Assembly: GCA_030636065.1 (NCBI GenBank)
Contig: DAOVXR010000037.1
Location: 1 to 9,691, forward strand
Reading direction: 5' to 3'
Origin: Sedimentisphaerales bacterium
GTDB taxonomy: Bacteria > Planctomycetota > Phycisphaerae > Sedimentisphaerales > SM23-30
Length of the DNA stretch: 9,691 nt
The notes below the pieces were generated by a model. The model made no database searches and was not told the origin of the DNA. It saw nothing but the letters and a program-made list of their open reading frames with translations. Below, in pieces: positions 291 to 9,540 of the stretch. Position 1 is the first letter of the stretch; each line of letters starts with the position of its first letter. Made by a program: the position numbers and the translations under genes.

Positions 291-347
291 ACTGATGGAT
301 AGTTTTGTGTCATATTTGTTAAATGCTCATTAAGTCGAGGCAAATCC

Positions 348-551
348 ATGAAAATCAAAGTTGTGGTCCATGAAGCGGAAGAAGGTGGTTTTTGGGCTGA
401 GGTGCCTTCAATACCCGGCTGTGCCACTCAGGGTGAAACTTTCGATGAGTTGTTAAGCAATATTTACGAGGCTGTTGAGGGGTGTTTGTCCGTAGATGTC
501 CGGAATATAGCTATATCCGAAAAAGATAAAATAATGGAGATAGCAATTTGA
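348..551 (+). CDS. hicB: HicB-family antitoxin
   Basis: This 67-aa protein matches the HicB antitoxin core (partial RNase H fold). It opens with a beta-strand MKIKVVV, then has the typical [23 protein letters not shown] stretch (about residues 13-35) and an amphipathic helix with EAVEG. HicB binds and neutralises the mRNA interferase HicA. Many HicB proteins carry a C-terminal helix-turn-helix or ribbon-helix-helix domain for autoregulation; this one stops after the core, so it either relies on another repressor or does not repress. The ATG at 348 has GAGG at 337-340, seven bases upstream. Its last four bases overlap the start of hicA, implying translational coupling. Here the antitoxin precedes the toxin, the reverse of the Escherichia coli hicAB order but common elsewhere. 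Confidence 0.88.
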
Positions 552-754
552 AGGCGGTTAGCGGAAAACGCTTTTGCCGGCTTCTTAATGATAAAGACTG
601 GCAATTGAAGCGTATCAGCGGGAGCCATCATATTTTTTTCAAGGTGGGCAACATAGCCCGTATTTCAGTGCCTGTGCATGGTAATACACCTCTGAAGATC
701 GGACTACAAAGGCATCTGATGAAGATTGCCGATATTGATGAATCGGATTTGTGA
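548..754 (+). CDS. hicA: HicA-family mRNA interferase toxin
   Basis: A 68-aa protein of the YcfA/HicA family, a small dsRBD-like fold that cleaves mRNA and arrests growth when not bound by HicB. Diagnostic features are the N-terminal [15 protein letters not shown] helix, the catalytic-His motif GSHHIFFK (His at residues 27-28) and the tail [23 protein letters not shown], which matches the usual family ending. The start is a TTG at 548-550 inside the hicB stop region (shared bases TTGA). No ATG is available before the conserved helix, so expression probably depends on ribosomes terminating hicB, which would keep toxin output low. Length is normal and all expected residues are present, so the toxin looks functional. 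Confidence 0.88.
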
Positions 755-5275: not shown

Positions 5276-6172
5276 TTATTTTTTTCGTGCTTTAATAATT
5301 CTTTTATGGCCAAGGTGGTCTTTCACCGTGGCAACATCATCAAGATAACCCGACTCCTCGAATAGCCTGGTTACGTCATCGGCCTGATTGTATGCGACCT
5401 CGACCATCAATAGCCCATCGTCGGCAAGGTATGGTTCAGCTTCCGCGACGATTCGGCGATAATAATCCAGTCCGTCATTCCCAGCCAGTAAGGCTTCCTT
5501 CGGTTCGTAATCACGAACGACCGGTTCCAGTTTCTCATACTCCTGCATTGAAATATAAGGCGGATTAGAGACAATCAAATCGAACACGCTCTTATCGGCC
5601 TTGCCCATCCCGGCGAACAGGTCGCTTTCAACCAGAGTAACGCGGCCTTCCAGTTCGTTGGCCTTGATATTCTTTTGGGCGATCTGTAATGCGGCCCGGC
5701 TGTTCTCGGCAGCGATTATCTCGGCTTCGACCGCGTTGGCGGCAATGGCAATTGCTATACAACCGCTACCGGTACACAAGTCCAGTACATCGACTGTTGG
5801 CCGATCCGCCTGATCTCGAATAAAATCCAGCGACTCTGTTACCAGTACTTCCGTCTCCGGCCGTGGTATCAGTACGCCCGGTTCGACCATTAGTTCCAGG
5901 CTGTAAAAATGCGCCTTACCCGTCAGATAAGCAACCGGTTCGTGCTTACCACAGCGGCGTACCTGTTCCTTATACGCAGCCAACTGTTCAGCGTCAGGGC
6001 AATGATCGAACTTAACATAAAGATCAATTCGTTTGCATTTTAATATGTGCGCCAGCAATATTTCCGCGCACAGCCGCGGCTGATCCACCTGCGATTTACT
6101 CAGGTAATCAGCGGTCCATTCCAGCAGCCGCCTGGTTGTCCATGGTGATTGTTTGTTTGTATCAGCATCCAT
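5276..6172 (-). CDS. prmC: Peptide chain release factor N5-glutamine methyltransferase PrmC
   Basis: A 298-aa PrmC (HemK) protein that uses S-adenosylmethionine to methylate the Gln of the GGQ motif in release factors RF1 and RF2, which improves translation termination. The N-terminal helical release-factor-binding domain covers about residues 1-85. PRPETE (104-109) leads into the Rossmann methyltransferase domain with the SAM-binding DLCTGSGCIA (131-140) and the glutamine-binding NPPY (203-206); the C-terminal GHKRIIKARKK is typical. Length is normal. The ATG at 6172 has no clear Shine-Dalgarno sequence. Its usual upstream partner prfA is not adjacent: 60 bases upstream lies the A+T-rich cassette. 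Downstream, the repeat element separates it from murA; without that element the prmC stop codon would lie about 15 bases from the murA start. Confidence 0.95.
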   Translation of the reverse strand: MDADTNKQSPWTTRRLLEWTADYLSKSQVDQPRLCAEILLAHILKCKRIDLYVKFDHCPDAEQLAAYKEQVRRCGKHEPVAYLTGKAHFYSLELMVEPGVLIPRPETEVLVTESLDFIRDQADRPTVDVLDLCTGSGCIAIAIAANAVEAEIIAAENSRAALQIAQKNIKANELEGRVTLVESDLFAGMGKADKSVFDLIVSNPPYISMQEYEKLEPVVRDYEPKEALLAGNDGLDYYRRIVAEAEPYLADDGLLMVEVAYNQADDVTRLFEESGYLDDVATVKDHLGHKRIIKARKK

Positions 6173-6232
6173 GCTTTATATTAAAACAAGAATTGGATAA
6201 ATAAAAGATGATATGTGAATATCCCGATAACC

Positions 6233-6844
6233 TTATAATGGGACGTGATCTCTTTCAGATATTTCATTATTTAAATATCTTGTTGAAAACGTATTTAATG
6301 CCCTATTAAATGCATCCTTCATTTCAGATGCAAACCTCGGAACCTCCTGAGTTTCTCTGTGAGTTTCAACCAAAACTTTTTCTACAAGAAATTTTGTTGC
6401 CCGACCTCCAGAAATCGCTCCCGCGACACACTTAATACCACGTTCTATAGACTCCTTTCTAACCGCGACGTCAACAGACACTTCAGAAACGTGGAATTCT
6501 TTTGCTCCAAGAATAATGAAACCAGTAACAGAGCCTGTACGATGACTTATCTTCCAGATCATTATCCCATCTTCTTCAGGCAAATCGAAAGCCGGCTCGT
6601 TGAGACCAAAATCGGCTACGATAGCATCGTTTTCAGAATCGTAATCACAGGTAAGGGTAATATCAAGTTCTTCGATATGCTTTTGGCCCAAACGTTGAGG
6701 TTTCTTTTGTGATCTTAGAAGACGTATTTCCCTTTCAGTTGAAGACGTAGCCATCCAGCCACAATCCGGGTTGAAACACCTGAATCGACCGAAATATTGA
6801 TCAAAATCCATTAACCATTTGTTACATTTTGGACACTTTTTCAT
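6233..6844 (-). CDS. Zinc-ribbon protein with DUF2283-like domain, second gene of the deaminase cassette
   Basis: A 203-aa protein of no named function. The N-terminus is a zinc ribbon of the form CxxC-x15-CxxxxC (Cys4, Cys7, Cys23, Cys28). Residues about 62-115 (YDSENDAIVADFG, then an acidic patch and GSVTGFIILGAKEF) resemble the small beta domain DUF2283; this is recognised by eye. The rest is a mixed, mildly basic stretch with no transmembrane segment. Its ATG overlaps the stop codon of the deaminase reading frame (ATGA at 6844-6841), and GGGGA lies six bases upstream, so it is probably translated from the same message. A role as regulator, sensor or nucleic-acid-binding partner of the deaminase is inference from this coupling only. 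Base composition is A+T rich like the deaminase and unlike prmC and dapL, suggesting both arrived together. Confidence 0.7.
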   Translation of the reverse strand: MKKCPKCNKWLMDFDQYFGRFRCFNPDCGWMATSSTEREIRLLRSQKKPQRLGQKHIEELDITLTCDYDSENDAIVADFGLNEPAFDLPEEDGIMIWKISHRTGSVTGFIILGAKEFHVSEVSVDVAVRKESIERGIKCVAGAISGGRATKFLVEKVLVETHRETQEVPRFASEMKDAFNRALNTFSTRYLNNEISERDHVPL

Positions 6845-7134
6845 TTTTCTTCCCCATAAAGCCGAAAATAAGCCCTAAACGTTACACCCTTAAAAAACTC
6901 TGCGTCTGCTTTATTTTGGAGTATTGCTTTAGTCTCTTCATCTGGATATGGTTCAAGATATACTACTTTACCTATTCCAATTTCTACTATTTTATTCGCA
7001 CATAATCGACAAGGGTAAGTTGTAGTATACAAGGGTAAGTTGTAGTATACAAGACACACTCTTTGAGTGACACGGAACGACCATTTCGAACAAGACCCAA
7101 TATGGCATTTTCTTCTGCGTGAAGCGCACGACAA
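6841..7134 (-). pseudogene. Detached C-terminal part of the deaminase reading frame
   Basis: This open frame carries the C-terminal end of the deaminase domain. After about 42 residues, partly out-of-frame translation and partly a repeat copy, it reads TTYPCRLCANKIVEIGIG and onward to FRAYFRLYGEEK. It therefore contains the complete PCxxC zinc motif missing from the upstream frame. On its own it lacks the HAE active site and the kinase-like domain, so it is not expected to be functional. It fixes where the original stop codon lay, overlapping the next gene by four bases. Confidence 0.6.
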
Positions 7135-8072
7135 TAATCAAGAATCTTAAATTTTTTCCTGAATATTCCCATCAGCTTTTTTTCATACCCTTCAACTTCT
7201 GGAATATCCGTCTTCATTGTTTTAATGAAATCATCACATAACCAATCTCTATAGCATTTTGTATATTTCTGCTTACAGGGTTTTTTGTCTTTTGGAACTT
7301 CATTGTATCCGGAACTGATGACATTTCCCACACCATCTACGATTATTGCGCCAACTTTCCTCTTGAGACAACTTGATCGCTGGCTTGCCGCGTAAGCCAT
7401 TGCCATAAAGGTTTCCATAAGTTTGATCGTTTGTTTATTTCTGAGTGGGTTAGCTGCAAGCTTAGCATATTCAGAAAAACTTCCTTTAAGTTTTTCAAAA
7501 CCTTCGTTACCAACTTCTTCAAAATCATCATCGTTTACAGCAACAATATCTGATTCTGAAAAACAGTCGCTTACATTTTGTCCATGTTCCGGAGTATCCT
7601 CCCCTTTATCTCTCTTATCATCTTCTTCAAAAGCTTTTCTATTACTATCATATTTTTCTTTGACCCGTCCCCATCTTCGCTCTTTATCGGCATATATACC
7701 AAACAAATAGAAATTACGGGAGTATTCACGAAGGGCTCGAATTTCTGCTGGGTTTCTTATACTATCTACAACCCATTTATCTTCCGGTTTACTGTCTTTT
7801 TTGATTTGGCTTACAATTTCATCAGCAAAATGCCCACGTCCCTTTTCGTCACGCGTTTTGTCCCCAAAATCCTGAAGTTCGCGTCGGTCCACTTCTTTAG
7901 GATCCTTTCCTGTCGCTTCTTTATACATTTCCCCCAACACGTCTGAAAGGGAAAGAAATCTGTAATTATTCGGTTCTGATTTTAGGATATTTTTGGCGAT
8001 ATAACTACAGCCACTACCGAACGAGCCGGTAAGACCAATAATATGTGGGTTATTAACCTCTTGATTGCCCAT
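6987..8072 (-). CDS. P-loop kinase-like/deoxycytidylate deaminase fusion, antiphage AvcD/DcdV type, truncated
   Basis: The readable frame gives 361 aa. Residues 1 to about 200 form a P-loop nucleotide-kinase-like domain: GLTGSFGSGCS (13-23), VDSIRNPAEIRALRE (102-116) and an ADKERRWGRVKEK stretch leading to TPEHGQNVSDCF. Residues from about 205 start the cytidine/dCMP deaminase fold: SSCLKRKVGAIIVD (233-246), extra Cys266, Cys273 and Cys279, the catalytic HAE (318-320) and YTTTYPC (342-348). This architecture is that of AvcD/DcdV and related antiphage dCTP deaminases, which convert dC nucleotides to dU forms after infection and starve phage replication. The 20-bp duplication diverts the frame after Cys348 into 13 foreign residues and a stop, so the last zinc-ligand Cys and the final helices are lost. 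The P-loop lacks the usual Lys (Cys22 instead). Low G+C and the single-cassette position suggest horizontal transfer. Confidence 0.8.
   Translation of the reverse strand: MGNQEVNNPHIIGLTGSFGSGCSYIAKNILKSEPNNYRFLSLSDVLGEMYKEATGKDPKEVDRRELQDFGDKTRDEKGRGHFADEIVSQIKKDSKPEDKWVVDSIRNPAEIRALREYSRNFYLFGIYADKERRWGRVKEKYDSNRKAFEEDDKRDKGEDTPEHGQNVSDCFSESDIVAVNDDDFEEVGNEGFEKLKGSFSEYAKLAANPLRNKQTIKLMETFMAMAYAASQRSSCLKRKVGAIIVDGVGNVISSGYNEVPKDKKPCKQKYTKCYRDWLCDDFIKTMKTDIPEVEGYEKKLMGIFRKKFKILDYCRALHAEENAILGLVRNGRSVSLKECVLYTTTYPCILQLTLVDYVRIK
7009..7053. repeat. Exact 20-bp tandem duplication disrupting the deaminase gene
   Basis: The unit ACAAGGGTAAGTTGTAGTAT occurs at 7009-7028 and 7029-7048 and is followed by ACAAG, giving 2.25 perfect copies. 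On the - strand it encodes YTTTYPC in the deaminase frame. Identity between copies is complete, consistent with a very recent duplication, a slippage-prone switch or an assembly artefact. Confidence 0.95.
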
Positions 8073-8079
8073 AATTATA

Positions 8080-8108
8080 ATTTTATCGATTTAGTGGGAT
8101 ATTGTCAA
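8080..8108 (-). promoter_or_regulatory. Consensus promoter of the deaminase cassette
   Basis: On the - strand a perfect -35 TTGACA (8108-8103) is followed after 17 bases by TAAAAT (8085-8080), a five-of-six -10. The expected start site, about 8072-8074, coincides with the ATG at 8072, so the transcript would be leaderless, in keeping with the lack of a Shine-Dalgarno sequence. A TATAAT at 8079-8074 is nearer the gene but too far from this -35. The rest of the 156-base gap to dapL shows only a weak CAACAG/CTGTTG inverted pair (8128-8133 and 8153-8158) and no clear terminator. Confidence 0.7.
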
Positions 8109-8228
8109 GTAGTTCAAAATTTCTTACCAACAGTCCCAGTCAAGACATCCACCTGTTGAAGCTCTCTGCTGCTGATATGAGCAAGTCGTTTTTATTGTCT
8201 CAATAGGGTTTAATCACAGGGTTGCCTG

Positions 8229-9455
8229 TTAGATTTTACTGATTCGGTCCATAGCGGTCTGGACGTTTTCACGGTCGCCGAAGGCCGAGAGGCGGAAGAA
8301 GCCCTCGCCTGCCGACCCAAAGCCGGCGCCGGGAGTTCCGACGACGTTCGCCTCGGTAAGCAGTTTGTCAAAGAAGTCCCAACTTCCGATACCGTTGGGC
8401 GTTTGCAGCCAGATATAAGGGGCGTTGACACCGCCATAAACAATATAGCCCATCCCGGACAGGCTGGTTCTGATTAACTGAGCGTTTTCCATATAATAGT
8501 CAACAAGCCGGCGGACCTGTTTTTTGCCCGCGTTGCTATATGTAGCCGCGGCGGCGGCCTGGACGGGATACGAAACGCCGTTGAACTTGGTAGTGTGTCT
8601 GCGGTTCCAGACAGGGTTGACCGGGACGGCCTCGCCGGCGGAGGTATAAGCCCGTAACTCTTTCGGCACGACCGTGAACGCGCAGCGGGTACCGGTAAAG
8701 CCGGCAGTTTTGGAAAAGCTGCGAAACTCAATAGCTACTTCCTTAGCGCCTTCGATTTCATAGATCGAATGTGGAATTTCCGGCTCGGTAATAAAAGCCT
8801 CATAAGCAGCGTCGAAGAGTATGACAGCCCTATTAGCGCGGGCGTAATCGACCCATTGCCGTAATGCCGCTTTCGTGGCCACGGCGCCGGTAGGGTTGTT
8901 GGGATAGCACAGGTAAATCAGGTCAACCTGTTCTTCAGGCGGAGCGGGAGTAAAGTTGTTTTCGGACGTACAGGGCAAATAAACAATGCCCTTGTAACAG
9001 CCGCGTTCGTCGGCGTCGCCGGTACGGCCGGCCATTACGTTGGTATCGACATATACCGGATAGACCGGGTCGGTAACGGCGATGGTGTTGTTAAGGCCGA
9101 ATATTTCCTGTATGTTGCCCGTGTCGCACTTGGAGCCGTCACTGATGAATATCTCGTCGGACGTAAGTTCCACACCACGGCTCTTATATTCGTTCTCGAT
9201 GACGGCCTGGATCAAAAAATCATATCCCTGTTCCGGCCCATAGCCCCTGAAAGTCGCCTTATCGGCCATTTCATCGACCGCCCGGTGAAATGCTTCGATC
9301 ACGGCAGTAGGCAGCGGCAGGGTTACATCACCGATGCCGAGACGGATAATTTGGGCCTGCGGGTTCTTTTTATGGAAATCATTGGTTCGACGCGCGATTT
9401 CAGGAAACAGGTATCCTGCTTTCAGTTTCATATAGTTTTCATTGATGGTAATCAT
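8229..9455 (-). CDS. dapL: LL-diaminopimelate aminotransferase DapL
   Basis: DapL is a PLP-dependent class I/II aminotransferase that converts tetrahydrodipicolinate and glutamate directly to LL-diaminopimelate, bypassing the succinylase and acetylase routes. The product feeds lysine and peptidoglycan cross-links. From the ATG at 9455 the protein has 408 aa, the usual length, and begins [23 protein letters not shown], a clear family N-terminus. [13 protein letters not shown] (37-49), [12 protein letters not shown] (69-80), CYPNNPTGA (183-191), DAAYEAF (215-221) and the PLP-binding Lys249 in [14 protein letters not shown] are all present. The frame extends 12 codons to a TTG at 9491, but neither start has a good Shine-Dalgarno sequence and the extension is unlike the family. 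It lies upstream of the accessory cassette on the same strand, though that cassette has its own promoter. With murA it makes the - strand group rich in cell-wall functions. Confidence 0.95.
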
Positions 9456-9540
9456 ACGAATATGGATACCAAAATAATGAAAGAAAGGCAAGATGAAATG
9501 AAAGGCGGATTCAACTCATAAGTGCAACAAATGTTAACTG

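What the first reader, a model, noticed from the sequence alone, without database searches (positions are those of the whole stretch)
7009..7053. A 20-bp exact tandem duplication switches off an AvcD/DcdV-type antiphage deaminase
Two perfect copies of a 20-base unit, with the first five bases of a third, sit in the zinc-site codons. Deleting one copy restores PCRLC and a full-length 403-aa protein ending in a four-base overlap with the next gene. With two copies the last zinc ligand and C-terminus are lost. Deaminases of this type are toxic when unregulated, so a slippage-reversible off state would be a plausible way to carry the system. A one-off mutation or assembly error would look the same in one sequence.
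Basis: partly seen in the sequence, partly recalled or inferred. Interest (0 to 1): 0.75.

Follow-up and report, generated by a model that had tools for sequence, protein, structure and literature searches.

The report
Frameshifted phage-defence-like deaminase gene
A recently duplicated 20-letter stretch knocks a phage-defence-like enzyme gene out of frame in a planctomycete-type bacterium; it looks like an ordinary, in principle revertible mutation, and nothing yet shows that the cell uses it as a switch.

Summary
Window 7009-7053 is a perfect 20-bp tandem duplication (2.25 copies) in the PCxxC zinc-site codons of a DcdV/AvcD-like gene. It leaves a 361-aa product without the last zinc cysteine and the C-terminus; the rest of the domain follows undecayed in another frame. 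A reversible switch is not supported: no second allele is visible to me, and among the 119 other proteins of the 120 best homologues 118 keep PCxxC, the exception being broken by an insertion sequence. The five-base third copy is the usual junction microhomology of a spontaneous duplication; the gene has about as many such seeds as a shuffle. The gene belongs to an acquired module (38.7% GC against 50-54%), absent from this site in a sister genome. In the two genomes of the order with close relatives the gene is also broken, differently: by an IS inside the very codons duplicated here, and by a frameshift near residue 117. Best reading: one of several independent, recent losses of a mobile, probably costly, defence-like gene. 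An assembly error cannot be excluded. The subfamily scores below NCBI's antiphage-deaminase cut-off and carries an undescribed downstream partner gene, probably more novel than the duplication.

The parts
7009..7053 (-). 20-bp perfect tandem duplication, 2.25 copies, in the codons for YTTTYPC
   Evidence: TRF; exact comparison
6987..8072 (-). Truncated DcdV/AvcD-like gene: P-loop domain plus deaminase domain up to PC of PCxxC, 361 aa
6841..7053 (-). Remaining C-terminal part of the deaminase in the other frame, conserved to YGEEK, stop overlapping the next gene
6233..6844 (-). Downstream partner gene, 203 aa, zinc-ribbon-like cysteines at the N-terminus; some relatives weakly DUF2283-like; beside this deaminase also in L003 and L009
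6173..8228 (.). Acquired region between prmC and dapL holding deaminase and partner; sister genome G316 has about 164 bp here
5276..6172 (-). Flanking gene, PrmC-like methyltransferase
8229..9491 (-). Flanking class I/II aminotransferase gene, 92% aa identity to that of G316. The name dapL is from recall

Best explanation
A mobile DcdV/AvcD-like deaminase module entered this Phycisphaerae-class genome between prmC and dapL. Recently a 20-bp tandem duplication arose in the zinc-site codons, by replication slippage or template switching between two copies of a five-base direct repeat. The frameshift removed the last zinc ligand and the C-terminal 50 or so residues and so should abolish deamination, leaving at most a fragment with the P-loop domain and ending translation about 143 nt before the partner gene. 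Shown: duplication, frames, lost motif, absence of decay, foreign composition, empty site in a sister genome, different breaks in two relatives. Inferred: slippage origin, loss of activity, relief from cost as the selective reason. Any perfect tandem duplication can revert by slippage (established knowledge), but that does not make it an evolved switch.
For: Perfect array with a five-base third copy, as left by a microhomology-flanked duplication. 57 seed pairs of five bases or more, 10-60 bp apart, in 1,013 bp of the gene; shuffled mean 51.9. Downstream piece as conserved as upstream. Of the 119 other proteins among the 120 best homologues, 118 keep PCxxC. In the order of the sister genome, 10 of 161 genomes match at E<=1e-30 and 2 of them are close relatives; both are broken, G002 by an IS in the same codons and G003 by a frameshift near residue 117. 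Module GC 0.387 against 0.504-0.542 in prmC, dapL, comM and murA; empty site in G316.
Against: One contig, no reads: an assembly or sequencing error would look the same. G002 and G003 are draft MAGs whose lesions could in part be errors. The undecayed downstream frame is also what a reversible switch, or no mutation at all, would give. More distant relatives in the class are mostly whole: 11 of 14 loci examined have one open frame with both zinc motifs. A four-base part of the seed recurs in some relatives, a mild hint of predisposition.
Confidence: 0.64

Rival explanations
1. Assembly or sequencing artefact: the organism has one copy and an intact gene.
For: Downstream frame shows no decay; a single contig; no read data, and no whole genome held. 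The database lists P0121, identical to the partner protein over its 192 residues, on a 6,713-base contig, apparently another assembly of the same organism, that I could not read.
Against: A 45-bp array is shorter than usual short reads and is not a typical misassembly (general knowledge). A clean 20-bp unit with five-base junction homology fits a biological event.
Confidence: 0.2
2. Reversible on/off switch: the duplication is gained and lost by slippage often enough that populations keep the gene silent and re-activate it under phage attack.
For: Perfect copies and an intact downstream frame. A four-base part of the seed (TGTA), spelled by the conserved Leu-Tyr and Pro-Cys codons, recurs at the same 20-nt spacing in 3 of 23 distinct zinc-site regions of relatives (L003, L004, L104); any lag-20 match of four bases or more occurs in 5 of 23. 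In fission yeast, reversible microhomology-mediated tandem duplications in ssp1 are described in review passages (PMC13207564).
Against: No second allele seen; no relative read has the duplication; seed density in the gene ordinary; the full five-base seed is in none of the 23 regions nor in L002/L009; the two close relatives are broken by an IS and by a different frameshift.
Confidence: 0.08
3. Translational recoding or ribosome bypassing reads the two-copy gene into a full-length protein.
For: Identical codons recur 20 nt apart, so a 20-nt hop would land on the same codon; downstream frame conserved.
Against: Twenty extra bases need +1, -2 or a long hop, so the common -1 slippage would not do (sequence); 118 of the 119 other best homologues keep PCxxC in frame; no Rfam match at gathering score in 6000-8400, best E 0.6.
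Confidence: 0.02
4. The duplication is a footprint of a departed transposon like the one that interrupts the same codons in G002.
For: The IS in G002 sits at a TA inside the same codons.
Against: TA-target elements leave short footprints (recall). The 45 bases of the array are only unit sequence, and a 20-bp unit with a five-base partial third copy fits slippage better. The window was not searched for the element as such.
Confidence: 0.02

Closest known systems
DcdV / AvcD anti-phage dCTP/dCMP deaminases (PADLOC dCTPase PDLC02373, NCBIfam NF041025)
   Same: N-terminal P-loop domain plus C-terminal deaminase with HAE and PCxxC; PADLOC E 7e-80, NF041025 E 1e-56; 26.0-30.5% identity over 93-94% of the query in the 20 plasmid records listed of 57, most of those 20 annotated as anti-phage dCTP deaminase or deoxycytidylate deaminase
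   Different: Below the NF041025 cut-off even when intact (P0002 252 of 400 bits); conserved downstream protein partner; an AvcI-like RNA was not directly tested; frameshifted here
Microhomology-mediated tandem duplications (fission yeast ssp1; cited in PMC13207564 as Dan et al. 2021, which I could not read)
   Same: Short tandem copy flanked by microhomology that frameshifts a gene and can revert
   Different: There reversibility is described; here only one allele is known
Phase-variable restriction-modification genes (recalled; otherwise seen only in search listings)
   Same: Frameshift by repeat copy number in a defence gene
   Different: Those tracts have many short copies and recur across strains (recall); here two copies in one sequence

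Membership tests
DcdV/AvcD deaminase | P-loop (kinase-like) N-terminal domain | tested here: met
   GSFGSGC present in the window and in the rows that reach that far; AAA_18 E 3.6e-6, 27.9 bits, just under its 29.4 cut-off
DcdV/AvcD deaminase | Deaminase domain with HAE and PCxxC in one frame | tested here: not met
   HAE present; PCxxC broken in the first frame and present only in the other frame; PCxxC kept in 118 of the 119 other best homologues, [HC]AE missing in 1 of the 120
DcdV/AvcD deaminase | Curated family models | tested here: inconclusive
   PADLOC dCTPase E 7e-80; NF041025 192.6 bits, and P0002 252, against a 400-bit cut-off
DcdV/AvcD deaminase | AvcI inhibitory RNA next to the gene | tested here: inconclusive
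   No Rfam match at gathering score in 6000-8400, best E 0.6; whether Rfam holds AvcI was not checked
DcdV/AvcD deaminase | Deamination of dC nucleotides and phage protection | not testable with these tools
   none
Phase-variable locus | Both repeat states present in a population or in related strains | tested here: inconclusive
   One state in one contig; no related locus read carries the duplication; no reads, so the population itself was not examined
Phase-variable locus | Repeat tract or its seed conserved among relatives | tested here: not met
   Five-base seed in none of 23 distinct zinc-site regions; a four-base part in 3 of 23; absent in L002/L009

The most novel reading that the evidence does not exclude
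The zinc-site codons of this deaminase subfamily are a recurrent, selected inactivation point (duplication here, IS in G002), and the duplication form acts as a slippage-reversible bet-hedging switch that lets cells carry a costly defence gene silently.
Probability: 0.07. Interest if true: 0.65.

Novelty: new member of a known kind. Interest (0 to 1): 0.27.

Why it matters
If it is simply a loss, it adds to the picture that mobile defence-like genes are gained and then broken quickly, here three times by three different lesions in what appears to be one order. If it were a switch, it would be a defence gene controlled by an unusually simple two-copy repeat, testable by read counting. The undescribed partner gene next to this deaminase subfamily deserves attention of its own: it could be a protein regulator where Vibrio uses an RNA.

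Tried and rejected
Own genome: none held for the window. Single-sequence scans for related loci confirmed no relative in genome contigs or viral contigs; the alignment A2 gave 9 loci and, capped, 80 of 191. The 20-mer is in no viral contig. Rfam gave one weak match below its cut-off. Chance repeat was rejected. Transposon footprint: considered because of G002, judged unlikely. Transposase family of the G002 element: not settled, since one search failed; 'IS630/Tc1-like' rests on the TA target and inverted ends and recall. PDB fold search with the partner model gave nothing at E<=0.001; its weak hits, uracil-DNA glycosylase inhibitor among them (E 0.52), are noise by E-value. Paper searches showed, in their listings, no title or abstract start about a tandem-duplication switch in a DcdV/AvcD gene; two of them returned nothing, and most subscription papers are not held.

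Full report
Observation. Tandem Repeats Finder reports 7009-7053 as period 20, 2.2 copies, 100% matches. The two copies are identical, the five-base remainder repeats the start of the unit, and the 20-mer occurs nowhere else in the window. An independent-base estimate gives about 3e-9 such arrays over lags 4-500, so it is not chance. Perfect arrays of period 10-60 are rare in what I held: 10 including this one, in 843,960 bases of 145 loci (some overlapping) plus the window. Of the 9 others, 7 have a period that is a multiple of three; whether those lie in genes was not checked.

What is interrupted. On the minus strand, 8072..6987 encodes 361 aa with a P-loop motif and the first part of a cytidine-deaminase domain (Pfam dCMP_cyt_deam_1). 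PADLOC's dCTPase profile matches it at E 7e-80 to profile position 469; the other frame (6841-7134) picks the profile up from position 461 to 520. The nearest relative, P0002, is 71% identical and 403 aa, with PCRLC and a tail ending YGEEK. The first frame reads PCILQ and stops at 6989-6987. The last zinc cysteine and the rest of the domain are therefore lost. The other frame ends at 6841 and overlaps the next gene (ATG at 6844) by four bases.

Age. The downstream piece is 73.4% identical to P0002 (47 of 64 columns) and the upstream piece 72.7% (253 of 348). There is no decay after the break, so the event is recent, reversible, or not real.

Genomic setting. No whole genome is held for the window. 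The window's aminotransferase is 92% identical to that of G316, found among 397 genomes of the class of G003, the genome of a record titled Phycisphaerae bacterium MAG49. G316 shares prmC and dapL at about 90% DNA identity but has about 164 bp where the window has about 2 kb. G316 is not among the 153 of 397 genomes with any deaminase match at E<=0.001. The module (6233-8072) is 38.7% GC, against 50.4% (prmC), 54.0% (dapL), 53.6% (comM) and 54.2% (murA). I read it as an acquired module.

Relatives. In the order of G316, 10 of 161 genomes match P0002 at E<=1e-30, and only G002 and G003 are close relatives, at E below 1e-100. Both are broken. In G002 the gene stops at a contig end (L002) and resumes at residue 343 at another contig's end (L009). 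The terminal sequences are a multicopy element: 4 matches of 132-135 of 135 bases at 100% and one weaker match in G002 for the left end (which also shows two 21-base matches in G316), 7 full-length matches and one weaker for the right end. Junctions read TATACTTTTC in 4 of 4 left ends and GAGCAGTATA in 6 of 6 right ends fetched, which implies a TA target inside the ACT ACA codons that the window duplicates. The family name IS630/Tc1-like is recall. In G003 the frame changes near residue 117. More distant relatives in the class are mostly whole: of 14 loci examined, 11 have a single open frame with both zinc motifs; L091 (G002) and L092 (G003) are the broken ones, and L149 is unresolved. Among the 120 best protein homologues, one of which is the window's own P0001, 118 keep PCxxC; the other exception is P0060, which is the G002 gene. 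That list favours whole proteins, because broken pieces score lower. Eleven short C-terminal proteins also exist, but contig ends could explain them. An archaeal relative, L005, has one TAA in its frame.

Two breaks within the same 20 bp of a gene of about 1.2 kb are striking, but with two events and a choice made afterwards this is weak evidence for a hotspot (my estimate of chance is a few percent; no call tested it).

Switch or loss. The five-base third copy is what a duplication between two five-base direct repeats leaves. Such seeds are common here: 57 pairs of five bases or more, 10-60 bp apart, in 1,013 bp of the gene, against a shuffled mean of 51.9. In relatives the full five-base seed is in none of 23 distinct zinc-site regions nor in L002/L009. 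A four-base part, TGTA, spelled by the conserved Leu-Tyr and Pro-Cys codons, recurs at the same spacing in 3 of 23, and a lag-20 match of four bases or more of any kind in 5 of 23. So the protein sequence may make this spot somewhat prone to slip, which speaks mildly for predisposition and not for an evolved switch. Any such duplication can revert, and in fission yeast reversible microhomology-mediated duplications are described (PMC13207564, passages). The toxicity premise is mixed in print: PMC9455884 (passages) reports filamentation when AvcD is over-produced without AvcI, toxicity in E. coli, and no observed toxicity in its V. cholerae system. PMC10511110 (passages) describes AvcI as an RNA that inhibits AvcD and is lost on infection, so the known system already has its own off control.

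Membership. The gene looks like a DcdV/AvcD enzyme by architecture, but the subfamily is apart: intact P0002 reaches 252 bits and the window's piece 192.6 against the 400-bit cut-off of NF041025, and identity to plasmid copies is 26.0-30.5% in the 20 records listed of 57. Anti-phage action is inferred.

Partner. The downstream gene has 21 listed proteins including P0121, the identical one, a cysteine-rich zinc-ribbon-like start in the rows that reach it, a weak DUF2283 match in 6 of 23 members but none for the window's own (best E 0.0011), a confident model (mean pLDDT 86) and no PDB match at E<=0.001. tblastn of the partner against the loci then held (L001-L133) found it only in L003 (and its duplicate L092) and L009, next to this deaminase. 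Five further pairs of deaminase and partner proteins share exact contig lengths (1354, 2275, 2844, 3437, 3894), which suggests, without proving, the same contigs.

Verdict. This is a recent-looking frameshifting duplication in a defence-like gene, most likely real and an ordinary loss, one of several in its group. An artefact remains possible. A switch is possible but unsupported.

Noticed in passing
6233-6844 (-): Undescribed gene family beside this deaminase subfamily: zinc-ribbon-like start, weak DUF2283 resemblance in some relatives, confident model, no PDB fold match; could be a protein regulator of the deaminase.
   Followed up: partly
L002 4900-5148 and L009 1-320: In MAG BS750m-G59 a multicopy insertion sequence with TA target sits in the same TTTYPC codons of the deaminase gene, splitting it over two contigs.
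   Followed up: yes
L003 4001-5178: Deaminase gene of MAG49 carries a frameshift near residue 117; the partner gene follows with an open frame.
   Followed up: yes
L005 4001-5194: Archaeal relative has one TAA inside the aligned deaminase frame.
   Followed up: no
342-754 (+): HicB-like and HicA-like toxin-antitoxin pair upstream of comM.
   Followed up: no
2554-2598: Imperfect tandem array of a 7/14-base unit (AGTTGTG-like) just after the comM stop.
   Followed up: no
database entry P0121: A protein identical to the partner over 192 residues is listed on a 6,713-base contig rather than the 9,691-base window contig, apparently a second assembly of this locus that could show the copy number.
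   Followed up: no
G281, G290, G305, G400, G412, G410, G437 (L098-L101, L146-L148): Seven other genomes of the order carry a more distant, open DcdV-like gene; tblastn found no partner gene in the four of these loci held at that time (L098-L101).
   Followed up: partly
L003, L004, L104 zinc-site codons: The conserved Leu-Tyr and Pro-Cys codons spell a four-base direct repeat (TGTA) 20 nt apart, the same spacing as the window's duplication.
   Followed up: partly
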